From Actinomycetota bacterium (GTDB taxonomy: Bacteria; Actinomycetota; Thermoleophilia; RBG-16-64-13): a stretch of DNA of 42,293 nucleotides. Of the stretch, positions 9,999 through 32,461 are shown in pieces. Made by a program: the position numbers and the translations under genes. Location: positions 1 through 42,293 of the forward strand of contig JAAYZX010000054.1 of assembly GCA_012514635.1 (NCBI GenBank), written 5' to 3'. Each line of letters opens with the position of its first letter. The first letter of the stretch is position 1. A model generated the notes under the pieces. It was not told where the DNA came from, did not search any database, and was given only the letters and a program-made list of their open reading frames with translations.

Positions 9999-11009
9999 CT
10001 AGATATCCGTTTCTGACAGAGAGCTCTCTATGGTCTCATCTACATCTGCATCCAATAGAGGTGCACTGTCTCCCGTGTCACTCATCGCCGGTGCCTCTCT
10101 CTGATCGCGGGCCAGCAGAGCCGTCTCACCGGTCATCATTGCGTCGAATGCCTTAGATTTCAGCCGACTGCGGGTCTGTTCGATTCGCCTGCGCATCTCT
10201 TCGTAATCAAAGCTTTGCGGCTCGCCGGACTCGGGCGCCGGATCAAGTTCTGTACTTGGTTGCGAAAGGGTCTCGAGCGGCGAAATTACGGAGGGCACAT
10301 CCTCTGCCGGACCGGCAAAATCCGTGGCCTCAACCGCTTTTGTTTCTTCCGGCGCTTCCACCCAACCGGCATCGTCGGCCATTTCGGGTAAGCCGGGGTC
10401 GTATGCCACCTCGCTCCCAGGAGTGTCGTCTGCCACCGGCGTCTCAGAGACCAGCTGCACCTCGAGAACGGGGGAGGACATCTCTTCCGTAACGACGGCA
10501 GCGTCACCCAACTGGAACGGGCTCTCCAGTTCGGCCTGGATACGCCGTCTCGTCTCTTCGATCCGCACTCTTAGATCAACGTCGGGTGCAGAGGTTTCCG
10601 CCGTCTCCACCTCTTTCGCCCGTGGCGCCTCCATCTCTCCAATAGATTCGGGTTCGAGATCCACCTCAATGATAGCTTCAACATCCAGTTCGGTAATGGG
10701 CTCCGTCGCCGGTTCACTCGGTATCTCTGTCAAGATCTCTGCAGATGCCTCAGCAGTGTCTACCGGCTCTGCCATCTGCACCGGCGGAAACGCTTCTTCC
10801 ATCGGAGCGGGCGGCGCAACGGACACTGGGGGCTCGGATACAAGAGCAGAGGGCTCATCCATGCGCGTTTCGCGATCCAGAACCGACTCGATGGTGCTCA
10901 CCCTTCTCAGCAGCGCTTCGCGGACCCTCTCGCCATGCTTGGGGGCAATCAAGAATCCTATAACTGCCCCGATGATCCCGCCAATCAAGAACTTACCTGC
11001 GTTCCTCAC
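9999..11009 (-). CDS. Membrane-anchored acidic protein with YtxH-like N-terminus
   Basis: The GTG at 11007-11009 follows AAGGAGG and gives a 336-residue protein; a frame open to 11051 has no such site. Residues 3-23 form a Gly-rich membrane helix (KFLIGGIIGAVIGFLIAPKHG) like YtxH-type proteins. The remaining 300 residues are very acidic, rich in Glu, Asp, Pro and Ser, and probably disordered. Two similar basic helices interrupt the acidic chain at about 146-162 (LRVRIEETRRRIQAELE) and 270-286 (EEMRRRIEQTRSRLKSK). Function is unknown; they could be docking motifs. It follows the other small membrane protein and RarA on the same strand, with gaps of 69 and 43 nt. Confidence 0.65.
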   Translation of the reverse strand: MRNAGKFLIGGIIGAVIGFLIAPKHGERVREALLRRVSTIESVLDRETRMDEPSALVSEPPVSVAPPAPMEEAFPPVQMAEPVDTAEASAEILTEIPSEPATEPITELDVEAIIEVDLEPESIGEMEAPRAKEVETAETSAPDVDLRVRIEETRRRIQAELESPFQLGDAAVVTEEMSSPVLEVQLVSETPVADDTPGSEVAYDPGLPEMADDAGWVEAPEETKAVEATDFAGPAEDVPSVISPLETLSQPSTELDPAPESGEPQSFDYEEMRRRIEQTRSRLKSKAFDAMMTGETALLARDQREAPAMSDTGDSAPLLDADVDETIESSLSETDI

Positions 11010-11078
11010 GTCGAATCCTCCTTCCGCCGGCGTCCGGGGTCGGCCGAACACTGTGTGTCGACTAATCTCATACTAATG

Positions 11079-11573
11079 TTAAGAAAGCCGTCGCAAATGC
11101 AGCCTTCCCTCGTTGTCTTCATTGGCTAATATCGACCAAGAGTACCCGAAGCTTAAGGTGGCCTGCGATACGATGCGCTGCAAAACCTGCCGCAGCTTGG
11201 GATCAAGCACGTAGGTCAAAGGCGCCGGCGGCCTGTCCCCCATCTGTACGCTGACATCTCCTGCAGAATCACGCGCCAGGAACACCACTCCAGAGCTTAG
11301 CTCGCTGAGACCCACTCCGGCGCTCGTAACGGTATCGCTCACTGCCGGCGCGCCGGATTCGGGAGCCCCGAGAAGCCCTTTCGGGACCACTGTTTCCCCG
11401 TCCAACGCATCCATTCGCGTCTGCATCAGCAACTGCTGCTGTGTGAAGGCCTGAAAGCGCGAAGCGTTGTCCCGCGCGCTACGGGAAACCTTGAGCAGCT
11501 TCACCAGATAATAGGCGGTGATGGCCACGAGCAAAACTGCAATTAGACCAAGTGTCATCAGTATGATGTTCAT
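11079..11573 (-). CDS. Hypothetical membrane-anchored protein
   Basis: This 164-residue protein has one N-terminal membrane helix (residues 2-24), then a polar helical segment (about 25-58) that could form a coiled coil. A Gly/Pro linker and a C-terminal domain of about 70 residues ending in a basic tail (GRLHLRRLS) follow. The helix plus coiled coil resembles DUF948-type proteins, but the match is loose. AGGAAA precedes the ATG. It lies between RarA and the acidic YtxH-like protein on the same strand and is probably in their operon. I cannot assign a role. Confidence 0.6.
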   Translation of the reverse strand: MNIILMTLGLIAVLLVAITAYYLVKLLKVSRSARDNASRFQAFTQQQLLMQTRMDALDGETVVPKGLLGAPESGAPAVSDTVTSAGVGLSELSSGVVFLARDSAGDVSVQMGDRPPAPLTYVLDPKLRQVLQRIVSQATLSFGYSWSILANEDNEGRLHLRRLS

Positions 11574-11616
11574 GGGTTTCCTGACGCACTATCCGAAGGA
11601 TTAATTTTCATAATCT

Positions 11617-12963
11617 TTAGCTCTCGGTAGGCGCATCCTGTCGTCCCGAGGATCGTAGCTCTCTCATCTTCCTTAAGAATTCGCGAATACGACCCTCGAA
11701 TCCTTGATGAGACGGTTGATAGAATTCCGTGCCTTGAAGCGATACCGGAAGACAGTTCTGGGATACATAGCCCCCCTCGTCATGAGGATACACGTATCCT
11801 GGATCTGTTTGGTGCGCACGTGCCTCAGCGGAGCGTCTGTCGCATAGGTACAGAGGAGGGGGCTGGGGCCCATGCGTGCGAACATGAGTTAGTGCGCGCT
11901 CCAAAGCCGCATAGGATGCGGTAGATTTAGGACAACAACTCAGATACGTCACCGCTTGGGCAAGATTTAGGCGCCCCTCCGGCAGGCCCACAAGCTCCAC
12001 GGCCCGTGCCGCAGCAACGGCAACCTCGAGCGCCCGTGGATCCGCGTTGCCCACGTCTTCACTTGCAAAGATTACTGCCCTTCTGGCGATGAAGAGCGGA
12101 TCCTCTCCACCCTCCAGCATCACGGCCAGATAGTACAGAGCGGCGTCTGGATCGGATGCCCTCAAACTCTTGATGAATGCCGACGCGAGATTGTAATGAC
12201 GGTCTCCTCCTTTATAGAAAGCCGCCAATGGTCTCTGTGCCACCGTCTCCAGCGTTTTCAGGTCCAAGCTTGTTTGCCCCCGCTCGGAAGCCAGAAGCAC
12301 CGCCTGCTCCAGAAGATTCAAGCTACGACGAGCGTCACCTGCACCGAGCGCGGCCACCGCATCGCGCTCCGCCGAACCAACCTTCATCCGCGGCGCAACC
12401 TCCCGCAAAAAACCCCAATCGACGGCGCGACCGACAAGCCTGCACACGTCGGCGTCTGTCAGCGCGTGGAAGGCATATATCTGGCATCGAGACAGGAGGG
12501 CAGAGATGACTTCAAAGTGAGGATTCTCGGTGGTAGCCCCTACTAAAGTCACCAGCCCATCCTCCACTGCATGGAGCAGAGCATCCTGCTGAGCCTTGGA
12601 AAAGCGATGGATCTCATCTATGAAGAGAAGAGTGCCCTGCCCCAGTTCGCCCAGACGACGACCCGCACTTTCGATGACTTTGCGGACCTCAGCAACTCCC
12701 GAAGCGACCGCCGACAATTCCTCAAAGGCCATTCCCGTCCGCTTTGCCACCAAACGAGCTACAGTGGTCTTTCCTGTACCAGGAGGACCCCAAAAAATCA
12801 TCGAGCCGATTCTGCCTGCACGCATGGAGCGTTCCAGAGGGCCCTCGGGCCCAAGAAGATGATCCTGACCTACAACATCCTCGAGCCGCCCTGGGCGCAT
12901 ACGAGCCGCCAAAGGTGCCTGCCTCGTCAACCGCTCCTCTTTCGCTGCAGAAAACAACTCCAT
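11617..12963 (-). CDS. rarA: Replication-associated recombination protein A (AAA+ ATPase)
   Basis: The 448-residue protein is a clear RarA/MgsA homologue, a clamp-loader-like AAA+ ATPase acting at stalled replication forks. It has Walker A GPPGTGKT (59-66), Walker B LLFIDE (112-117) followed by IHRF, the sensor-1 segment GATTENP (142-148) and the arginine-finger region around R159. The helical C-terminal half has the family's KSLRASDPDAALYYLAVM and the C-terminal PQNC-like tail. The start is ATG 12961-12963 with GGAG 5 nt upstream; a GTG two codons earlier lacks proper spacing. It is divergent from the HNH gene and is first in an operon with two membrane-anchored proteins. Confidence 0.93.
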   Translation of the reverse strand: MELFSAAKEERLTRQAPLAARMRPGRLEDVVGQDHLLGPEGPLERSMRAGRIGSMIFWGPPGTGKTTVARLVAKRTGMAFEELSAVASGVAEVRKVIESAGRRLGELGQGTLLFIDEIHRFSKAQQDALLHAVEDGLVTLVGATTENPHFEVISALLSRCQIYAFHALTDADVCRLVGRAVDWGFLREVAPRMKVGSAERDAVAALGAGDARRSLNLLEQAVLLASERGQTSLDLKTLETVAQRPLAAFYKGGDRHYNLASAFIKSLRASDPDAALYYLAVMLEGGEDPLFIARRAVIFASEDVGNADPRALEVAVAAARAVELVGLPEGRLNLAQAVTYLSCCPKSTASYAALERALTHVRTHGPQPPPLYLCDRRSAEARAHQTDPGYVYPHDEGGYVSQNCLPVSLQGTEFYQPSHQGFEGRIREFLRKMRELRSSGRQDAPTES

Positions 12964-13060
12964 TGGCACTCCAGGTTAGGACCTTCTCATGGTTTCATTC
13001 TAGCAATCTGTGTGCGCCACTCGAACCTGGGACAGTACCAAACCACCAACCAGGGACCTG

Positions 13061-20066: not shown

Positions 20067-21995
20067 ATGCTCCAACTGTCGCTCACCCTAGCTAACGATC
20101 TGTACGAACTGCTGGCCATCAGCGGCGAACCCGTCGACTTCCTGAAGGCAGCACGCAGGTTGTTGGCCCTGAAGGAGGCTCCCGCCTCTCTTTGCCGCGA
20201 AGTGATGAACTCGCTTGTGGTCGAAGATGGTCGCTTCTGCTGGCATAGTCCCCAGTCCTTGGGTCTTCGTGATTGGCAAGAAACGGACCCAGACCTGAAA
20301 GACGTCAGCTTCGTGGTTGTGGACGTGGAGACAACCGGAGGCCGTCCTGGGCCTGCTAAGATCACGGAAATTGGGGCGGTGAGAATAGAAGAACTCCGCG
20401 TGGTTTCCACCTTCCACAGTCTCGTCAATCCACAGCGCCCCATTCCGGCCAAGGTTATCGAGATCACAGGTATCACGCCGGACATGGTGAGAGATGCCCC
20501 TCGTATAGAATTGCTCATGCCCAATCTGATGGAATTTATGCAGAACTCTGTGCTGGTCGGACACAACGCCCAATTCGACCTTGCCTTCCTGAACTACGAA
20601 CTCTCGCGTCTCGACGGGCGACGTTTGGACGAGGGTGCCTTTGACACTCTCAAGCTCTCGCGACTCTTGGCGCCTGGGCTCCCGAATCATCAGCTGTCCA
20701 CAGTGGCCGGGGCGCTCGGCTCCCGGGTGGACACGTTCCACCGCGCCCTGGCAGACGCATCCGCCACCGCCGATATCTTTCTCGTGCTCGTCGGACGTCT
20801 CCAGGAGAGAGGCATTACGCGACTCAACCAGGCACGCAGTTTCGCCGACCCTCTGCACAAACGCGACCGGCACAAGCTGGTCCTGACAAGACATCTTCCT
20901 CGCACTCCCGGCGCCTACCTCTTCAGAGACGAGAACGACGAAGTCCTGTACGTGGGAAAAGCCGATCGCCTACGAGACAGAGTGCGCTCGTACTTCATAT
21001 CCGGCCCCGATCATTCGCGCCGCGTTCGTCAGGCTCTGCGACGCCTACACCGCGTTGACTACGTGGAGGCGACAACACCATTGGAAGCGATTGCAACGGA
21101 GCAGGATCTCATCCTGCAGCATCGGCCACAGTGCAATACATTCGGTCGCAATCCGGAGCGCTATGTCTATCTTAAGGCTGAAGGAAACCGTGGCCTGCGC
21201 CTATACACCAGTCCCAACCCGAGTGCTCGAGGAGCTACCGTGGTCATGGGGCCTTTTCGGGGTAAAGGTAGAGTGACGGGCGCCATTGATCTACTGACGC
21301 GCTGCTATCCTATTCGCCGTTGTGCGCGGAACGCTGGGGACCCGTGTCTCTACGGGCAAACCGGCAGATGCCTGGCGCCCTGTGTCGGACAACCGGACGA
21401 GATTGCCCGCCACGATGCCCTCGTTTACGACCTGCTCCGCTGGCTGGCAGGCGACCTCCCCCAACGGTTCAGTCAGCCCGATCCTCCCGAAGCCATGGCA
21501 CTGGCACTTACGACCAAACTTGCTCGGCAGAGCCGGTTTGAAGAGGCGGCAGAGATCAAGAAGGCGCTCGACGATACCCTTGCCCTGCGACGTTCATGCC
21601 GTGCCGTCATGGACGGTTTGAGGATCAACACGGCCGCGCTGTGGCCCGACTACACCGACACGATTATGCCCCAAGCCCATATTTCTATAGTTTGGGAAGG
21701 ATCTGTAGTGGCAACTTTGACGGTTACTGAGAGCACAGCCGCATTGGAGATCGGCAGATTTATACGCACACTGGAACCGCCTACGCAACCGCGGTTTCCT
21801 GTGGCGCTACCCAACACCAGATTGGATTCTTTGCTGGCCATCCGTCGCTGGCTGCTGGAGAATCAGACCATCCTCCGAGTGCCGTACAGCGACTCAGACC
21901 CTGTCAGCGCCCGCGAGAGCCTGGACAGATGGGGCGAAAATATAATGGCCTCCGCCCTGCGCCTCCTGACGATCCACCGACCACCAAGCAAATAA
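20067..21995 (+). CDS. DEDDh exonuclease fused to UvrC-type GIY-YIG nuclease
   Basis: This 642-residue protein joins two nuclease domains. A helical N-terminal segment (1-75) precedes a DnaQ-like 3'-5' exonuclease at about 80-250 with all DEDDh residues: D86 and E88 in VVDVETTG, D171 in HNAQFD, and H225 and D230. From about 275 a GIY-YIG domain follows (PGAYLF, then LYVGKAD, R302), similar to UvrC and Cho. A CYPIRRC and CLYGQTGRCLAPC cysteine region is next. A UVR-like helical motif sits near 500. The second UvrC nuclease (RNase-H fold) and HhH domains are absent. The architecture is known from Actinomycetota, where a role in DNA repair is presumed. AAGGCGG precedes the ATG. Confidence 0.87.
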   Translation: MLQLSLTLANDLYELLAISGEPVDFLKAARRLLALKEAPASLCREVMNSLVVEDGRFCWHSPQSLGLRDWQETDPDLKDVSFVVVDVETTGGRPGPAKITEIGAVRIEELRVVSTFHSLVNPQRPIPAKVIEITGITPDMVRDAPRIELLMPNLMEFMQNSVLVGHNAQFDLAFLNYELSRLDGRRLDEGAFDTLKLSRLLAPGLPNHQLSTVAGALGSRVDTFHRALADASATADIFLVLVGRLQERGITRLNQARSFADPLHKRDRHKLVLTRHLPRTPGAYLFRDENDEVLYVGKADRLRDRVRSYFISGPDHSRRVRQALRRLHRVDYVEATTPLEAIATEQDLILQHRPQCNTFGRNPERYVYLKAEGNRGLRLYTSPNPSARGATVVMGPFRGKGRVTGAIDLLTRCYPIRRCARNAGDPCLYGQTGRCLAPCVGQPDEIARHDALVYDLLRWLAGDLPQRFSQPDPPEAMALALTTKLARQSRFEEAAEIKKALDDTLALRRSCRAVMDGLRINTAALWPDYTDTIMPQAHISIVWEGSVVATLTVTESTAALEIGRFIRTLEPPTQPRFPVALPNTRLDSLLAIRRWLLENQTILRVPYSDSDPVSARESLDRWGENIMASALRLLTIHRPPSK

Positions 21996-22400: not shown

Positions 22401-23639
22401 CTAGACACGAGTCTCTCGAATGGTCATCACGTCGACCTGATCGCCCGCCTTCTTGCCGCTGCCTTCCGGACCCACGAAGGCCAAAGCGCTTGCTCCCACC
22501 ATGGAGCGCACCCGTCCCGATCCCTGCGATCCTGTGGAGTGCGCCAGAACGCGACCCTCAGAACGCTCCAACCACACACGTACCACTCGGACACGTTTCT
22601 CACTGTTTGGCTCATCCTGTGCCAGAACTGCAGTGCTCACAGATCGCACAACCGCGGTATGCCCCATCAACCGAAGCAACGTGGGCCTGATGAAAAGCTC
22701 AAAAGACACCATTGCGGACGCCGGGTTCCCCGGCACACCGAACACCAGGCATCTTCCGCCCTCAGGTCGCTCGAAAACGCCAAACGAGAGCGGTTTCCCC
22801 GGCTTCATGGCTACACGCCACAACTTGCGCTCCACTCCCAGTGCGTCCTGCACGTCCTTGACGAAATCGAAATCACCTACAGACACGCCCCCCGACGTGA
22901 TGAGTACATCGTTTACCAGGGCGTTCCGCATCATGGCCAACGTCACATCATAGTCGTCCGGTGCAATACCCATACGTTGCGGCTTCACACCCACTTCTAC
23001 GCACTGAGCCTCGGATGTGTACGCATTGGAATTGTAAATCTGGCCCTTAGCCAAAGGATTGCCCGGCTCAACGAGTTCGCTTCCCGTAGCAATTATGGCA
23101 ACCGAAGGCTTCCGGTACACACGAACCGTGGGCATACCGAGGCTTGCCAGTACCCCTATCTCCGCGGGTCCAATCGCCGCCCCGGCTGCAAGCACTTCCG
23201 TGCCTTTCGGCGAGTCCTCGCCCATAGGCCTGACGTTATCCCAGCTCTTCACTTTTCGCCTGACCAGCACCGTTCCGGCAGTTTCCGTCGTGGATTCTGA
23301 CTCCACCACGGCATCCGCACCTTCCGGAAGCGGAGCACCGGTCATGATCTTGGCTGCGGTGCCCGATACCACGACTTGCTTTCCGGAAGTACCCGCTCTT
23401 ATAACATCGACCACTGCCAGAGATACGGGCTCTTCCTCCTTGGCGCCCTCTGTGTCCGCCGCCACGATCGCAAATCCGTCCATGGCGGAGTTATCAAACG
23501 GCGGGATGTCCATAGCAGCTACCACCGGGTGAACCAGCGCTCTTCCAAGCGCCTCCGACAGAGGCAAGTCCTCCGGTGGCAGGGGTTGACAATGAGCAAG
23601 TATGAGTTCCCGCGCATCTTCGATACTGATCAAGGTCAC
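22401..23639 (-). CDS. moeA: Molybdopterin molybdenumtransferase
   Basis: The 412-residue protein inserts molybdenum into adenylylated molybdopterin at the end of Moco synthesis. It has the MoeA landmarks in order: PPFDNSAMDGFA, KIMTGAPLPEGADAVV, the MoCF/MogA-like domain with IIATGSELV and TSGGVSVGDFDFVKD, and GVPGNPASAMVSFELF. The C-terminal domain follows (about 330-412). I choose GTG 23637-23639 with GGAG 10 nt upstream; the frame runs back to 23804 without similarity to the family. No other Moco genes and no molybdoenzyme are in the window, so its client is unknown. Confidence 0.9.
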   Translation of the reverse strand: MTLISIEDARELILAHCQPLPPEDLPLSEALGRALVHPVVAAMDIPPFDNSAMDGFAIVAADTEGAKEEEPVSLAVVDVIRAGTSGKQVVVSGTAAKIMTGAPLPEGADAVVESESTTETAGTVLVRRKVKSWDNVRPMGEDSPKGTEVLAAGAAIGPAEIGVLASLGMPTVRVYRKPSVAIIATGSELVEPGNPLAKGQIYNSNAYTSEAQCVEVGVKPQRMGIAPDDYDVTLAMMRNALVNDVLITSGGVSVGDFDFVKDVQDALGVERKLWRVAMKPGKPLSFGVFERPEGGRCLVFGVPGNPASAMVSFELFIRPTLLRLMGHTAVVRSVSTAVLAQDEPNSEKRVRVVRVWLERSEGRVLAHSTGSQGSGRVRSMVGASALAFVGPEGSGKKAGDQVDVMTIRETRV

Positions 23640-23783
23640 TCGTTTCCGGCTCCATTCTCGTCGATGGCCCCTCGGGGATTGCAATGGACAGATTACCCCT
23701 TTCAGAAACAACAACAAACCGTCCATTTGGCGCATGACGCCCAAGTAGCATACAATTTGTTTGTTATCGTCGCGAGGAGTGGG

Positions 23784-25607
23784 ATGCAATTTCCTATTCG
23801 GCAAAAGATCGCCGATAGAGTCTGGCGATGGAGAAGGGCAACCTACGCGGTCAGCGCGGCGGTAGTGCTCGTAACCCTTGCCTCCGTGTTTTTGTCAATC
23901 TCCACTCCTCCCTCCACCATAGAGGTCTCTTCGGCGCCCACCTTCTTCGACGCCAACAGAGCACTCAGGACCACACAAGAACTTGCACGCCTCTACTCCG
24001 ATCGCCACCTCGGCTCCGAAGACGCAGCAGGAGCAGCCGCATGGCTGACGGACAAGCTCTCCTCGCTTGATATCGAACACTTCAATGAGAGCACTTTGGT
24101 CCCGTATGGCGACAAACGAGTGGCCGTAGATAACATCTGGGTTGTCCTGCCCGGTACCTCGCCGCGCACCATTGTTTTCAGCGCTCCGCGAGACCCGGCG
24201 GCAGATGCCCGACTCTCTGCTCTGGCCCAAGCCGCTCCCACAGCATGCCTTATCGAGCTCATCCAAGTATTCTCTACGCGCTCCCATCAACGCACTCTTG
24301 TCTTCCTATCAAGCGAAGGCGGCTCACAAGGAGGCCTCGGGCTCTCTGCATTTCTGCACGAATACCCCGATACCGAACGAATCGAGACGGTTATCTCCGT
24401 ACAGGCTCTTGGAATGGAGGGAAGAGACTTCCTCCAAGCCGGGATAACGGGACCAGGAATCACTACTCCAGGATGGCTAGTAGAGACCGCTACACGCGTA
24501 CTCGCTCGAGCGAGCTTGGATCTGCACCTCCCCAATCTCCAAGAACAGATCGCCGACCAAGCATTGCGGCTCTATTCCGGCGAACAGGTGGCAGCACTCA
24601 GAGCGGGCATCCCCGGCCTGACGCTCTACGACAGCGGAGAGGGTACGGTGACCTCGGGCGGATTGGCAACACAAGGTGCGGCCCTTGAACGCCTACTACT
24701 CTCTCTCGACGACGCCGGCTCCCCACCACGGGACCCCGGCACGGCGATTGTACTGGCATCGGGGAGATACTTCACACACCGCTCGCTCACTATCCTTGGC
24801 ATCCTGGCGCTTCTGCCCGCCATCCTCATGACCTTCAGTTGGCTGGCGGTAACGCGTCTCCGGCCCGAGGGTTGGTTGCGACACCTGCGCAACCTGCTCT
24901 CGTTCGTGGTGCCGGTCGCCGTTACCCTCTTCCTTACCTGGGTGGCGGCGCGCGTGGGCCTGATGCCCGTTTACCTCAACCAAGCGATTCTCTCTTCTCC
25001 AGAAGCAACCCAGCCAAACTGGATTGTAGGGCTGACTTTGCTTCTTCTCGGACTTGTCCTTTTCATCATAAGCCGCCATTTCCTCGGCTATCTCAAGCCT
25101 GTTGAAAGTCGCGCCACAACAGAGATGGCAAAACTGACCGGAGGCCTGGCTCTGCTCACCTTGGGTCTCATATTTCTTCTCGCTTCTTCGCCCTTCTCCC
25201 TGGCGCCCGCGGTTACCGTTGCGTGGATATGGCCGCTCTGCACGAGCTTCTTGGAGCCGCCCAGCCCGGCTATGCCATGGTGGCCCAACTCTCGTTCCAA
25301 CCTCTGGCTGTTGGCCTTGGGGCTAATTGGACCACTTGGCTTCTATGCTTACCTGAGCGCAAACACGGCCGCGGGGTGGTTTGGGGCCTGGTGGTTCTTC
25401 CTGGTGCAGATGGTCTCCGGTGCCTACGGGATCATAGGCCCTGCCGGTACGGCTTTTGTGGCGGCCGGCCTTCTCTTACTCATGGGTTCGCGTAGGTTGC
25501 GACTCAAGCCTGTGGAATCGCTGCAGCGCACGAACGGCCTGGGCACAGTTGAGCCGCCCCCTCGTGTCCTGAAAGTAAGGAAAAAAACCGGACAAACGAA
25601 AGGCTGA
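23784..25607 (+). CDS. Membrane protein with M28-peptidase-like domain lacking metal ligands
   Basis: The ATG at 23784 follows GAGGAG by 4 nt and gives 607 residues. After a signal-anchor helix (about 20-40), residues 60-320 resemble the M28 aminopeptidase fold. RTTQELARLYSDRHLGSEDAAGAAAWL corresponds to the family N-terminus (residues 62-88), and NIWVVLPG, IVFSAPRD, LVFLSSEGG and GLSAFLHEY follow. The zinc ligands are altered: the His-x-Asp His is Pro135, the bridging Asp is missing, and only one of the paired Glu residues (E178) remains. About 6-8 hydrophobic helices fill 325-575, and the basic tail is cytoplasmic. I expect an inactive peptidase fold used for binding; the function is unknown. 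Confidence 0.7.
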   Translation: MQFPIRQKIADRVWRWRRATYAVSAAVVLVTLASVFLSISTPPSTIEVSSAPTFFDANRALRTTQELARLYSDRHLGSEDAAGAAAWLTDKLSSLDIEHFNESTLVPYGDKRVAVDNIWVVLPGTSPRTIVFSAPRDPAADARLSALAQAAPTACLIELIQVFSTRSHQRTLVFLSSEGGSQGGLGLSAFLHEYPDTERIETVISVQALGMEGRDFLQAGITGPGITTPGWLVETATRVLARASLDLHLPNLQEQIADQALRLYSGEQVAALRAGIPGLTLYDSGEGTVTSGGLATQGAALERLLLSLDDAGSPPRDPGTAIVLASGRYFTHRSLTILGILALLPAILMTFSWLAVTRLRPEGWLRHLRNLLSFVVPVAVTLFLTWVAARVGLMPVYLNQAILSSPEATQPNWIVGLTLLLLGLVLFIISRHFLGYLKPVESRATTEMAKLTGGLALLTLGLIFLLASSPFSLAPAVTVAWIWPLCTSFLEPPSPAMPWWPNSRSNLWLLALGLIGPLGFYAYLSANTAAGWFGAWWFFLVQMVSGAYGIIGPAGTAFVAAGLLLLMGSRRLRLKPVESLQRTNGLGTVEPPPRVLKVRKKTGQTKG

Positions 25608-25694
25608 TGGCGCCAAGACTCATCGTAATCGCTATCGACATCGTGTCCCCATGCCGATACATACGTTGAAAGACGTGTGAAGAGGGCACCTCAC

Positions 25695-27068
25695 ATGAAT
25701 AACCTTTTTGGCAAAAATGGCGCTATGATCTCCCGCTTTCGAGCCGCTGTGGCCGCAAAAATCCTGATTGCCTGCGTACTCATGGTCGTAGGTTGGTTTG
25801 CTAACGGAGGAGCTTGGTCGGCATCCGCCCTCATTGTCACACTGCTGATCGCCGGCCTTGTAATCGACGCTTGGACAAATCGCAGAAAACCTTCCCACAC
25901 ATCGGCCGATGCAGATAACGAGATGTCCCACCAACCCGAGCCCGGACAGCCGCACCATACGGGAACTCCTACTACGGTCACCGGTATAGACGCCTTCATG
26001 GCCGACCTGCTAAACCAAACTCAGACCACCGACACTCTGGAAGTTGCCATCCTGCGTGAAGACCTCTACCGGCTCCAGGCGTTCAACAACCAGTTGCTCC
26101 GATTGGGTGAGATCGCCCAGGAGCTCAATACGGCTCTACCCTTCAAGGAGACCAAAGCCAAAGCACTTGCACTCGCACGGCAGTTGCTGTCGGCGGACGT
26201 GGTGGCATTCGTAGCGGAGACCGGCCGGGAGTTCACTCTGCAAGGCGTGTCCGGATGTGAAGAGGAAGACGTGAATGTGAACTGCTGCGGATACTACTCC
26301 CGCTGCCCCATACGCACCTCTTTCCGTGACCTGCGACCAACCGTTATCTCCAATGCCGACTGCAAAGCCTTCCCGCCCACTCTGCGCGCCCACCTCTCCC
26401 TTCCCTTCCGCATGGACGATAAAAGCGTGATGTCCCTCATGGCAGCCGCCACCGGACCCGATGCTTTCTCTCACGTATCCTTGCCTATTTTAGAGAGTCT
26501 GGTGGGACACATACAGGCCGGCCTGAAGGCGGCACAGAAATACGACGCCATCCGCCGCGAAGCCATCACCGATCCTCTTACCAACCTCTATAACCGTCGT
26601 TTCTTCGAGGCGCGGGGGAGAGAGGAGATCGAACATAGCCTGCGCCACCGCGAGCCGTTGACCATTCTCATGTTCGATGTCGATCACTTCAAAGACATCA
26701 ATGACACATACGGACATCAGACCGGTGACAAGGTTCTACAAGCCATAGCACAATATCTGAAGGACCAAACCCGTACATCCGACATCTGTGGTCGGTACGG
26801 TGGCGAGGAGTTCGCGCTGCTGCTACCCGCCACGCCGGGTCGCAACGCCGGTTTCCTCGCTGATAGGTTGCGCGACGGACTGTCTCAGATTATGTACACA
26901 GGGTTAGGTCTGCCCGCCAACGCCTCCGTCACGGTCAGCGCAGGCCTGGCCACTTGTCCTCATGACGGAACCACACTGGAGGAATTGGTGGCACAGGCGG
27001 ATACGGCTCTGTATCAGGCCAAGCGATCAGGAAGAAACCGGGTAGTGCGGGCTACGCCGAGTGGATGA
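25695..27068 (+). CDS. Membrane-bound GGDEF diguanylate cyclase with Cys-rich GAF-like sensor
   Basis: This 457-residue protein has two membrane helices (about 18-36 and 43-60), a polar linker and a short coiled-coil region (about 115-140). A GAF-like domain follows (about 148-285), then a GGDEF domain (about 288-455). The active site GGEEF is at 369-373, and the RxxD inhibitory site RTSD at 360-363 sits at the canonical 5-residue distance, so product inhibition by c-di-GMP is expected. The GAF-like domain contains five Cys (188, 197, 198, 204, 223), which could hold a metal or act as redox switch. The start is ATG 25695 with GAGGG upstream; GTG 25677 is an alternative. It lies 87 nt after the M28-like gene. 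Confidence 0.88.
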   Translation: MNNLFGKNGAMISRFRAAVAAKILIACVLMVVGWFANGGAWSASALIVTLLIAGLVIDAWTNRRKPSHTSADADNEMSHQPEPGQPHHTGTPTTVTGIDAFMADLLNQTQTTDTLEVAILREDLYRLQAFNNQLLRLGEIAQELNTALPFKETKAKALALARQLLSADVVAFVAETGREFTLQGVSGCEEEDVNVNCCGYYSRCPIRTSFRDLRPTVISNADCKAFPPTLRAHLSLPFRMDDKSVMSLMAAATGPDAFSHVSLPILESLVGHIQAGLKAAQKYDAIRREAITDPLTNLYNRRFFEARGREEIEHSLRHREPLTILMFDVDHFKDINDTYGHQTGDKVLQAIAQYLKDQTRTSDICGRYGGEEFALLLPATPGRNAGFLADRLRDGLSQIMYTGLGLPANASVTVSAGLATCPHDGTTLEELVAQADTALYQAKRSGRNRVVRATPSG

Positions 27069-28232: not shown

Positions 28233-31172
28233 ATGCGACCCACCATCAATGCCCTCGAGAAGGACCTGCGACGCCTCATCCGCGGCGACGTTGAGTTCGA
28301 CCCAATCTCCCGCCATCTTTACGCCACCGACGGCAGCATCTTCCAGATAGAACCGCTGGGAGTGGTGTCTCCGCGCGACGCGGACGATGTAGCACGACTG
28401 GTTGCGTACGCCTCTCAACACAGCGTACCGCTGGTCGCACGCGGAGCAGGCTCCGGTCTGGCCGGCGCAGCGCTCGGCACCGGATTGCAGGTGGACTTCA
28501 CAAGATACATGAACCGCATCCTAGAGTTTGCCCCGGATGGTTCCTGGGTCCGCGTGGAACCCGGAGTCATCATGGGTGAACTAAACCGCCGCGCCAAATC
28601 CTACGGCACCTTCTTCGCGCCCAACCCTTCCAGCGAGAACTACTGCAGTTTGGGCGGAATGATCGGATGCAACTCCTCCGGCTCACGTTCCGTAGCCTAC
28701 GGAGGGACCAAGGACCACGTACTTGCACTCAACATTGTATTGCATGATGGTAGAACCTTCGAGGCCGGCACCTTGGGCCGAGACTCAGCAGAGCTCGCTC
28801 AACTCCTGCAGGGAGACAGCCTCCCAGCCAGGGCTTTTCGTAACCTCGTAACAACCCTGGAAGAGCAGGCATCCATTATTGAAGCATCACTGCCGCGCGT
28901 GATGAAGAATGCCTCTGGCTACCGTGTAGAGACTGTGTTGGAGCCGGAATCCGGCCTTGTACACCTGCATAAGATTTTCGTCGGCGCGGAGGGTACGCTG
29001 GGTCTGGTGACAGAAGCCACCTTGAACCTGGTACCACTGCCCGGGAAACGCGCCATCGCTATGGCGTACTTCCCCACGGTCTTCTCGGCTGGAGAGACGG
29101 TCTTCCCAATCCTCGGCCTCAAACCCACGTCTCTCGAAATCATGGACGCCGGCTTCCTCCGATTCGTGCGTCGCAACGATCCCAAGATTGATGCTCTGGT
29201 GCCGGCCAATGCCGATACCGCCCTCCTCGTAGAGTTTGAAGCGGCCGACGATTCTCAGCTGGCAGAACAACTAGAGTCGCTACAATCGCTCCTCGCCGGG
29301 GGCGACGCCATGGAGATACGCCCCGCTTTCGATGCAGCCGAACAAAAGCAATTGTGGGCGGTGCGCCAAGCAGCCGTTCCCCTTCTCCAGAAACTGCCTG
29401 GACCCAAACGTATCACCGAATTCATTGAGGATGTTACCGTCCATCCCGATGTACTAGCCAAGTACATGAACAAACTCACCCGCATACTCGCTGGGTTCGG
29501 ATCTGAGGCCATCATGTATGGGCACGCGGGAGACGGCAACATCCACACCCGCCCCGTACTGGATCTGAAACAAAGCAGCGACTTAGCCATCATGCAGAAG
29601 ATGATGGACGAAGTCATGGATTATGCGTTAGAGATTCAGGGTACACCGTCCGGTGAACATGGTGATGGATTAATACGTTCACCCTACGTGCGCCGTGTCT
29701 ATGGCGATGATGTCTACAATATTTTCAAGTCCATCAAAAGGACTTTCGATCCCAACGACATCTTCAACCCAGGCAAGAAGATCGTCTACGAATCCGAAGG
29801 CGGAGGCGTAGGCCGCAACCTGCGATACGGCCCCGCGTACTGGACCTTCGACCAACCCACGTATCTCCTGTTCCCGGATGGGGAATACGAGCGTGAGATC
29901 GAGAAGTGTCACGGATGCGGTCAATGTAAGAGCGCCGTAGGGACAAGCATGTGCCCCATCTTCAAAGCCACTAGAAGGGAACATGCCTCGCCTCGCGCAA
30001 AAGCCAATCTCCTGCGCAACATCATCCAGGGCAAGCTGCACCCTTATGACACGTACGCCGAAGAAGCGTTCAAGAACGTGATCGACTACTGCATTGAATG
30101 CGGAATGTGCGCCGTAGAATGTCCCTCCAACGTCAACATCCCCAAACTGATGTTGGAAGCTAAGAGCAAGTACCGGAGCCTGGCCAAGCCCAATAACGTG
30201 GAGCGAGTACTGGGTAATGCCGGCCTCGTTTTTGAAGCAGGGCACATTCTCGCCCCTGTAGCCAACGCAGTCATGAAGCAGCAACCTCTCCGCGGTATCG
30301 GGGAGCGCGTCGTGGGTATCGATCGTCGACGCGCCCTTCCCAACTTCGCCGGAAGAACACTTTCCCAGAGGCTGCGCAGGCGTGGGAAGGATATGGTGAA
30401 GGGGTCTGCCACGACACCCGGCGACTACAGCGCGCATGTGGCCTTCTTCTACGAGATGTACGCCAACTACAACGACCCGGATCTTGCATTCATCATGGAG
30501 GAACTGCTTCGTTCCCATGGAGTAGACGTTGTATTCCCACACCAAAAAAGCAGTGGCATTCTAGACATGGCATACGGGCTTCCCGCCAAAGCTTCTGAGA
30601 TCGCTCGGTACAACGTCAACACGGTACTGCCGTACGTGCGCGCCGATGCAATCCTCGTGTCCGGCGAGCCCACGGCCACTTTTGCGTTCCGCGCACACTA
30701 TGCCGACTACCTGGATGATCCAGTTGTGGCCGAGGTTTCGGCCGCCACACGCGACCTGGGAGAGTTTCTCTACGAATGGCGAAGCGCCCATCCGGAGCAG
30801 GCACCAGCTCCCGTTGCCATGCCTCTGACGCTCGCCTACCATATGCCCTGTCACCTCAAGGCTCAGTGCTTGTCCTACACGTTCTACGACCTCGTGGCAC
30901 AAGTACCAGACGTGCAGTTGGTTGACCTCGATGCCGGTTGCTGCGGCATGGCCGGCACATTCGGTACCAAAGCCGGAACGTTTGAGCTCTCTATGCTTGC
31001 CGGACGCCCCGTCTTCGACAGGGTGGAAACACTCAAACCGGATTTGGTCCTCTCCGACTGCAGTTCTTGTCGCATGCAAATTGAACAGGCCACAGGAGTT
31101 GCGACCATGCATCCAGCCGAACTGCTTGCACATCTCTATGGCATAACACCGGCGCGTCGCTCGCTGCCCTAG
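28233..31172 (+). CDS. FAD-binding and Fe-S oxidoreductase, D-lactate-dehydrogenase-like
   Basis: This 979-residue protein fuses a GlcD-type flavin domain to a GlcF-type Fe-S domain. The FAD_binding_4 domain (about 40-180) has VARGAGSGLAGAALG and CSLGGMIGCNSSGSRSV; the FAD-oxidase C domain follows (about 255-520) with YGHAGDGNIHTRP. Two 4Fe-4S motifs begin at about 559 (CHGCGQC) and 620 (CIECGMCAVECP). Cys-rich CCG-type segments follow near 870 (MPCHLK) and 905 (GCCGM). Such proteins oxidise D-lactate or other 2-hydroxyacids and pass electrons to quinones or ferredoxin/Etf partners. LarA next to it favours D-lactate. GAGGT lies 8 nt before the ATG. Confidence 0.87.
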   Translation: MRPTINALEKDLRRLIRGDVEFDPISRHLYATDGSIFQIEPLGVVSPRDADDVARLVAYASQHSVPLVARGAGSGLAGAALGTGLQVDFTRYMNRILEFAPDGSWVRVEPGVIMGELNRRAKSYGTFFAPNPSSENYCSLGGMIGCNSSGSRSVAYGGTKDHVLALNIVLHDGRTFEAGTLGRDSAELAQLLQGDSLPARAFRNLVTTLEEQASIIEASLPRVMKNASGYRVETVLEPESGLVHLHKIFVGAEGTLGLVTEATLNLVPLPGKRAIAMAYFPTVFSAGETVFPILGLKPTSLEIMDAGFLRFVRRNDPKIDALVPANADTALLVEFEAADDSQLAEQLESLQSLLAGGDAMEIRPAFDAAEQKQLWAVRQAAVPLLQKLPGPKRITEFIEDVTVHPDVLAKYMNKLTRILAGFGSEAIMYGHAGDGNIHTRPVLDLKQSSDLAIMQKMMDEVMDYALEIQGTPSGEHGDGLIRSPYVRRVYGDDVYNIFKSIKRTFDPNDIFNPGKKIVYESEGGGVGRNLRYGPAYWTFDQPTYLLFPDGEYEREIEKCHGCGQCKSAVGTSMCPIFKATRREHASPRAKANLLRNIIQGKLHPYDTYAEEAFKNVIDYCIECGMCAVECPSNVNIPKLMLEAKSKYRSLAKPNNVERVLGNAGLVFEAGHILAPVANAVMKQQPLRGIGERVVGIDRRRALPNFAGRTLSQRLRRRGKDMVKGSATTPGDYSAHVAFFYEMYANYNDPDLAFIMEELLRSHGVDVVFPHQKSSGILDMAYGLPAKASEIARYNVNTVLPYVRADAILVSGEPTATFAFRAHYADYLDDPVVAEVSAATRDLGEFLYEWRSAHPEQAPAPVAMPLTLAYHMPCHLKAQCLSYTFYDLVAQVPDVQLVDLDAGCCGMAGTFGTKAGTFELSMLAGRPVFDRVETLKPDLVLSDCSSCRMQIEQATGVATMHPAELLAHLYGITPARRSLP

Positions 31173-31180
31173 GACTCTGC

Positions 31181-32461
31181 ATGCTGACTATTCCCTTCGC
31201 CGACGGTGAGATTGAGGTGCAGGCTCCAGTCGGAGCCTCCCTCTTTGAGGTTGCGCCACTGCCGGAACGTCACACAGAGCCACACCAAATCTTATCCGAC
31301 GCCCTTGAGGCACCGCACGTGCACCAAGCGTTGACCGAGCTCCTGGCCCCTCGGGCAGATCGGCGCACGGTTATCGTTGTAAACGATGCCACGCGACCCA
31401 CACCCACCGGCCTGGTGCTCGACACCCTAATCCAGCGCGGTCTACTCCGAGCCACCGCCACCGTCACCGGGCGTCTTCGCCTACTGATAGCCACGGGCGC
31501 CCACGCAGCGGGCGGCCCGGACGAGCTTGCCCAAATCCTCGGTGATAAAAATGTAGACCTACTGGCACCTCTCGTCCGCTGGCACGACGCCCGAGATGCT
31601 GCATCCTCGGTCTACTTAGGAGACACACCGGTACATACACCCGTCTGGATAAACCGAGAGGTAGTCGAAGCCGACGGCCTCATACTCATCAACTCAGTAG
31701 AGCCCCACTACTTCGCCGGCTACACGGGTGGTCGGAAATCTCTTGTCCCCGGTGTATCTGGTTTTGCCACAATCGAGGCCAACCACCGCCTGGCACTCGA
31801 TCCCACAGCCGAAACCCTGGGACTCGACGGAAATCCGGTACACGAGGATCTCATGGAAGCGGCGGCTCTACTACCTCCACGGCCTCTTCTTTCGATACAA
31901 ACGGTGCTCGACCGGACACACAACATATGTGCAGCCTACGCCGGAGATCTCTTGGAGACATTTACAGATGCAGTCCAAGCGGCAAATCGCGAGTACGTAG
32001 TAGACCTGCCGCACAGGTACGACATCGTGGTAACGGCAGCTGCGCCACCCATGGATTACGATTTATACCAATCGCACAAGGCGCTCGAAAATGCCTCGCT
32101 TGCAGTCCGGCCGGGTGGAGCGCTCGTCTTGGTGAGTAGTTGCCGACACGGTATAGGCGACCGCACGTTCTTTGACCTTCTGGCAGCAAGCTCAGACCCG
32201 GAATCTGTTCTCAAAGCTGTGGCGGCCACATATCGTCTGGGTTTCCACAAGGCGGCGCGGCTGGCATCTCTCGCCCAGCGTCACCGCATCATGTCGGTGA
32301 CGGGACTTTCCCAAGACACATCTCGCGCGGCATTTCTTGAACCCTTCCCGTCTCTAACCGCCGCTCTGAACGACGCAGCAACACGCCTAGGACCCAACCC
32401 CAGTATCTTGGTCATACCCGATGGATGTGTGACGGTCCCGCGAGTCAAGGAGACGACGTGA
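31181..32461 (+). CDS. larA: LarA-type nickel-pincer racemase (lactate racemase family)
   Basis: The 426-residue protein keeps the residues that define active LarA. R72 lies in NDATRP and H108 in IATGAH. H176 and the cofactor-linked K186 lie in PHYFAGYTGGRK, and H202 in EANHRL; these match R75, H108, H174, K184 and H200 of the Lactobacillus enzyme. It interconverts D- and L-2-hydroxyacids using a nickel-pincer nucleotide. The start is ATG 31181, 8 nt after the dehydrogenase stop, and the 3' end overlaps ridA by 4 nt. The cofactor genes larB, larC and larE are not in the window and should be elsewhere in the genome. The hydroxyacid substrate is inferred. Confidence 0.82.
   Translation: MLTIPFADGEIEVQAPVGASLFEVAPLPERHTEPHQILSDALEAPHVHQALTELLAPRADRRTVIVVNDATRPTPTGLVLDTLIQRGLLRATATVTGRLRLLIATGAHAAGGPDELAQILGDKNVDLLAPLVRWHDARDAASSVYLGDTPVHTPVWINREVVEADGLILINSVEPHYFAGYTGGRKSLVPGVSGFATIEANHRLALDPTAETLGLDGNPVHEDLMEAAALLPPRPLLSIQTVLDRTHNICAAYAGDLLETFTDAVQAANREYVVDLPHRYDIVVTAAAPPMDYDLYQSHKALENASLAVRPGGALVLVSSCRHGIGDRTFFDLLAASSDPESVLKAVAATYRLGFHKAARLASLAQRHRIMSVTGLSQDTSRAAFLEPFPSLTAALNDAATRLGPNPSILVIPDGCVTVPRVKETT

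What the first reader, a model, noticed from the sequence alone, without database searches (positions are those of the whole stretch)
23784..25607. Membrane protein carrying a metal-dead M28 peptidase fold
Residues 60-320 follow the M28 pattern, but the first His ligand is Pro, the bridging Asp is absent and one of the two Glu is Gly. The C-terminal half holds 6-8 helices. This suggests an exported binding domain derived from a peptidase, perhaps a receptor or scaffold, next to a c-di-GMP cyclase.
Basis: partly seen in the sequence, partly recalled or inferred. Interest (0 to 1): 0.6.

Follow-up and report, generated by a model that had tools for sequence, protein, structure and literature searches.

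The report
Dead-peptidase membrane receptor of Thermoleophilia bacteria

Summary
The 607-residue protein (23784-25607, +) has one N-terminal membrane helix, an exported M28-peptidase fold (~45-320) and about seven further membrane helices. Every canonical M28 metal or catalytic position is lost: His->Pro135, bridging Asp->Ala148, BOTH glutamates (Gly180, Ser181), fourth ligand->Gln207, last His deleted. The loss is ancestral: among 65 homologues from at least eight families, none keeps the catalytic Glu or the last His. Three residues absent from intact M28s are instead near-invariant (Arg136 65/65, Gln255 63/65, Gln268 62/65), suggesting a re-used pocket. The full-length family is a core, nearly always single-copy gene of class Thermoleophilia (328 of 399 genomes). 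The full-length model's best PDB matches are all GPAA1, the metal-dead M28-like subunit of eukaryotic GPI transamidase. The membrane bundle alone does not match GPAA1 significantly, and no C13 (PIG-K-type) peptidase was found, so this is GPAA1-like architecture, not GPI transamidase. The GGDEF neighbour is not conserved. In other families the gene is usually divergent from a two-component system, in several loci followed by an HtrA protease. Most likely role: non-catalytic receptor/scaffold of the cell envelope. Ligand and partner are unknown.

The parts
23784..25607 (+). Gene for the 607-residue M28-like pseudopeptidase membrane protein
   Evidence: homologues in 328 of 399 Thermoleophilia genomes
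23847..23903 (+). Membrane helix 1 (residues 22-40), N-terminus probably cytoplasmic (6 Arg/Lys, 1 acidic, in residues 1-18)
   Evidence: hydropathy; model (helix 3-37)
23916..24743 (+). Exported M28-fold domain (residues ~45-320)
   Evidence: Pfam M28 117-281; model and Foldseek to M28 enzymes and glutaminyl cyclases
24186..24194 (+). P135-R136-D137: first His ligand lost; Arg136 invariant in 65/65 homologues
24225..24227 (+). A148 in place of the bridging Asp
24321..24326 (+). G180-S181 in place of the catalytic/ligand Glu-Glu pair
24402..24404 (+). Q207 in place of the fourth ligand (Asp/Glu)
24546..24548 (+). Q255, family-specific conserved residue (63/65), no counterpart in intact M28s
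24585..24587 (+). Q268, family-specific conserved residue (62/65), at the position of His/Phe/Leu in intact M28s
24777..25484 (+). C-terminal membrane bundle (residues 332-567), seven long helices plus one short helix; both termini probably cytoplasmic
   Evidence: (pLDDT 89.7)
22401..23693 (-). MoeA, divergent neighbour; conserved next to the gene in the same family and, convergent, in several loci of family f4
25677..27068 (+). GAF/GGDEF diguanylate cyclase, neighbour here but not conserved

Best explanation
It is a membrane-anchored pseudopeptidase of the Thermoleophilia cell envelope. Shown: one helix, an exported M28 fold without any metal site, then a multi-helix bundle; the loss is ancestral to the class; the gene is core and nearly always single-copy. 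Inferred: the former active-site cleft, re-lined by invariant Arg136 and conserved Asp137, Gln255 and Gln268, binds an extracytoplasmic ligand (peptide, wall fragment or lipid head group) without cleaving it, and the membrane bundle presents that ligand to, or assembles, a membrane enzyme or signalling partner, as GPAA1 and nicastrin do in eukaryotes. The synteny with a two-component system and HtrA points to envelope homeostasis.
For: 0 of 65 homologues keep the general-base Glu or last His, while Arg136 (65/65), Gln255 (63/65) and Gln268 (62/65) are family-specific constants. Open reading frames at 44-55% identity across genera of the family and presence, nearly always single-copy, in 328/399 class genomes (183/215 good ones) argue for selection. 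Full-length Foldseek hits 1-5 are all GPAA1 (637-645 columns for the four human chains, 614 for the fifth; E 1e-14 to 1e-17; TMq 0.56-0.59); M28 enzymes match only the exported half (TMq ~0.35). hhalign of the family against human+yeast GPAA1: E 1e-7, 288 columns, residues 7-317, versus E 0.004-0.4 for intact M28 controls; smaller ten-sequence subsets give E 3-6e-4 (window's family) and 0.002-0.1 (other families). Human GPAA1 likewise lacks a Zn site and tolerates mutation of candidate ligands (PMC9098846). A divergent histidine kinase/response regulator lies upstream in about 19 of 28 loci outside the window's family, with HtrA next to it in several.
Against: No operon partner: the conserved flanking genes are on the opposite strand and differ between families, so the partner is a guess. 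No ligand is known; nearness of Arg136 and the two Gln in space is inferred from the M28 fold, not measured. The histidine kinase synteny is missing in the window's own family, where MoeA sits instead.
Confidence: 0.55

Rival explanations
1. It is a bacterial relative of GPAA1/Gaa1 proper and works in a transamidase-like membrane complex that attaches proteins to a lipid.
For: Same order of parts and metal-dead M28 domain; best PDB match over the full length; closer to GPAA1 than intact M28s by profile comparison. TMq of 0.57-0.59 cannot come from the exported half alone (~0.35), so the bundle is placed similarly. Actinobacteria make phosphatidylinositol glycolipids (general knowledge).
Against: Membrane bundle alone: no PDB match with E below 0.1; GPAA1 has the best TM-score of the list (0.37-0.43) but below 0.5; no sequence match for the bundle (hhalign null; profile score about 2 SD above shuffles, 2 of 60 shuffles reach it). 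No C13 peptidase in 61 relatives. Pfam Gaa1 best E 0.1 among members, none over cut-off.
Confidence: 0.1
2. It is still an enzyme, using metal-independent chemistry or a partial metal site.
For: Some members, mostly of family f4, keep H1, bridging Asp and fourth Asp (3 of 6 positions; one member 4); conserved Arg/Asp/Gln in the exported domain.
Against: General-base Glu and last His are gone everywhere, and in the window protein all six positions are gone.
Confidence: 0.15
3. It is an input module for the neighbouring diguanylate cyclase.
For: The genes are adjacent and in the same direction in the window.
Against: A related GGDEF gene lies nearby in 5 of 17 family loci, is absent in the closest relative, and was not found in the loci of other class families.
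Confidence: 0.04
4. It senses or regulates envelope stress directly through the divergent two-component system and HtrA, like an accessory sensor of an MprAB-PepD-type system.
For: Divergent kinase/regulator in about 19 of 28 loci outside the window's family; HtrA beside the kinase in several, resembling the mycobacterial mprA-mprB-pepD-moaB2 order (PMC11656743).
Against: Not adjacent in the window's own family; class families f1 and f2 have other neighbours. MprAB orthology was not tested.
Confidence: 0.2

Closest known systems
GPAA1/Gaa1 (GPI transamidase subunit; Pfam PF04114)
   Same: One N-terminal helix, exported metal-dead M28 domain, about seven C-terminal helices; best full-length structural match; profile match over residues 7-317.
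   Different: Membrane bundle not significantly similar by itself; no C13 catalytic partner found; not above the Pfam Gaa1 cut-off.
Intact actinobacterial M28 peptidases with a multi-helix membrane domain (ERMP1-like by general knowledge; L090, L094, L095)
   Same: Same order of parts; profile alignment spans residues 15-440, i.e. into the membrane half, E 1e-15 to 5e-20.
   Different: These keep all M28 ligands and continue into a longer C-terminal part.
Transferrin receptor, nicastrin and other non-catalytic M28-fold receptors
   Same: Peptidase fold reused for binding; TfR profile match E 5e-13, with an Arg-Asp pair at the lost HxD motif (AQRDAWG).
   Different: Different membrane anchoring (one helix) and accessory domains (general knowledge).

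Membership tests
M28 peptidase (fold/superfamily) | M28 alpha/beta fold | tested here: met
   Pfam 22.8 bits vs 21.3; Foldseek to many M28s, E to 1e-12
M28 peptidase (active enzyme) | two His, bridging Asp, Glu-Glu pair, fourth Asp/Glu | tested here: not met
   none of the six present in the window protein; at most 4 of 6 in any of 65 homologues
GPAA1/Gaa1 | one helix + metal-dead M28 domain + seven-helix bundle | tested here: met
   PMC9098846 for GPAA1
GPAA1/Gaa1 | homologous membrane bundle | tested here: inconclusive
   best TM-score of the list but 0.37-0.43, E about 2; no sequence signal
GPAA1/Gaa1 | Pfam Gaa1 above cut-off | tested here: not met
GPI transamidase complex | C13 peptidase partner (PIG-K/Gpi8) | tested here: not met
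   0 of 61 genomes
Membrane M28 peptidase (ERMP1-like) | intact M28 site on a multi-helix anchor | tested here: not met
   architecture met, site lost

The most novel reading that the evidence does not exclude
Thermoleophilia carry a bacterial counterpart of GPAA1 that scaffolds an undescribed membrane complex handling proteins or lipids at the cell surface, so that the GPAA1 architecture predates or arose outside eukaryotic GPI anchoring.
Probability: 0.1. Interest if true: 0.85.

Novelty: new variant of a known kind. Interest (0 to 1): 0.5.

Why it matters
A core gene of a whole bacterial class has no assigned function, and reading it as an 'M28 peptidase' (the Pfam hit) is misleading because the active site is gone throughout. 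It is a bacterial case of the GPAA1/nicastrin principle, a peptidase fold turned into a membrane-complex receptor, and gives a genetically simpler place to ask how that conversion happens. GPAA1's membrane part was reported to resemble no known fold (PMC9098846), so even a partial bacterial match is worth an experimental structure.

Tried and rejected
c-di-GMP link: GGDEF adjacency not conserved. Sequence search of PDB with the single protein: chance hits only. Named-genome scan with the single protein: no relatives found, solved with the alignment. GPI transamidase membership: no C13 peptidase, Gaa1 Pfam below cut-off, membrane bundle not significant alone. First neighbourhood clustering was polluted by antisense ORFs in GC-rich DNA and was redone with a GC-by-codon-position filter. 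Decaying pseudogene: rejected, since open frames are conserved across the class. Recent loss from an active enzyme: rejected, since no examined homologue in the class has a full site.

Full report
What was checked. The ORF at 23784-25607 (+) encodes 607 residues. Pfam M28 is just above its cut-off (22.8 vs 21.3 bits). Homologues from the same family are 44-55% identical. The genome is a Thermoleophilia (Actinomycetota) MAG, judged from its named relatives: the matching GTDB records are Gaiellales, Thermoleophilia and Actinomycetes MAGs such as RBG_16_64_13.

Active site. Aligned to seven intact M28 sequences, the window protein has P135 for the first His, A148 for the bridging Asp, G180 and S181 for the Glu pair, Q207 for the fourth ligand and a gap for the last His. 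Across 65 class members, zero keep the general-base Glu and zero the last His; 24 keep none of six positions, 31 keep one, and the most intact (mostly family f4) keep three or four (H1, bridging Asp, fourth Asp, and in one case the second Glu). The metal site therefore most likely died before the class diversified. Meanwhile Arg136 is invariant (65/65) where the intact M28s have Tyr/Phe/Ile/Leu, and Gln255 (63/65) and Gln268 (62/65) have no counterpart in them; Asp137 is kept in 63/65. Transferrin receptor, another dead M28, has the same Arg-Asp step.

Architecture. AlphaFold2 (39 sequences) gives pLDDT 87. Helix 3-37, exported domain to ~323, then helices 332-356, 361-390, 413-435, 443-468, 470-487, 507-527, a short 531-544 and 551-567; positive charges at both ends fit N-in/C-in with eight membrane helices. 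Against the PDB the five best hits are all GPAA1 (8imy_G, 7w72_A, 8imx_G, 7wld_G, 9ub7_A), 614-645 columns, E 5e-14 to 9e-18, TMq 0.56-0.59; glutaminyl cyclases and aminopeptidases follow, on the exported half only. GPAA1 has eight membrane helices and a soluble M28-like domain without a zinc motif, and mutating candidate ligands does not reduce activity (PMC9098846).

How far the GPAA1 likeness goes. hhalign of the family alignment to human+yeast GPAA1: probability 94, E 1e-7, residues 7-317. Controls: ten intact M28s E 0.004; intact membrane M28s E 0.08-0.4; ten-sequence subsets of the family E 3-6e-4 (window's family) and 0.002-0.1 (other families). The advantage over intact M28s is thus modest once depth is equalised. 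For the membrane bundle alone there is no significant match: Foldseek E about 2, though GPAA1 has clearly the best TM-score of the listed hits (0.37-0.43 vs at most 0.25 for the rest), and no sequence signal. So homology of the bundle is open. Intact actinobacterial membrane M28s match over 15-440, into the membrane half, which makes an ERMP1-like membrane peptidase the likeliest ancestor (inference).

Distribution. Full-length relatives occur in 328 of 399 Thermoleophilia genomes (183 of 215 good ones), nearly always one copy; family f6 is conspicuous among those without it. In a phylum sample, matches outside the class cover only the peptidase domain. Other phyla could not be searched at this depth. 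In the window's genome the only other PF04389 hit is a partial one (68 of 193 positions).

Neighbours. In the window's family the gene is divergent from MoeA in all 16 retrieved relatives; GGDEF is nearby in 5 of 17 loci, the window included. In other families MoeA, ThiL-like or PBP1A genes lie downstream on the opposite strand, and a response regulator and/or histidine kinase lies divergently upstream in about 19 of 28 loci, with an HtrA protease and MoaC further on in several. This resembles mprA-mprB-pepD-moaB2 of mycobacteria (PMC11656743), but MprAB orthology was not tested. No C13 peptidase was found in 61 relatives.

Verdict. A conserved, non-catalytic, membrane-anchored M28 protein with a GPAA1-like build. 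Receptor/scaffold in the envelope is the best reading; ligand and partner are unknown. No paper found in the searched library described a bacterial GPAA1-like protein, but that library is incomplete.

Noticed in passing
28233-32461: A fused FAD-linked oxidase/4Fe-4S protein (lactate- or glycolate-dehydrogenase type) is followed directly by a LarA lactate racemase; relatives of both lie close together in several family members.
   Followed up: partly
20067-21995: A protein with an N-terminal DnaQ-like exonuclease and a C-terminal UvrC/GIY-YIG-like part (read from sequence), conserved beside MoeA in the family.
   Followed up: no
9999-12969: YtxH-like protein and RarA/MgsA ATPase; in class family f3 relatives of these two genes lie right next to the pseudopeptidase gene.
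   Followed up: partly
L036:8017-9869 (G004): In this relative the gene is split over two overlapping frames (likely a frameshift, real or an assembly error).
   Followed up: no
class family f6 (G022, G027, G032, G037 and others): All listed genomes of one Thermoleophilia family lack the gene despite near-complete assemblies; comparing its gene content could reveal the partner.
   Followed up: no
L054:7885-9744 (G035, family f4): Most nearly intact member by eye: keeps AHRD, DDNAS, an EE-like stretch and INLD but lacks the last His.
   Followed up: partly
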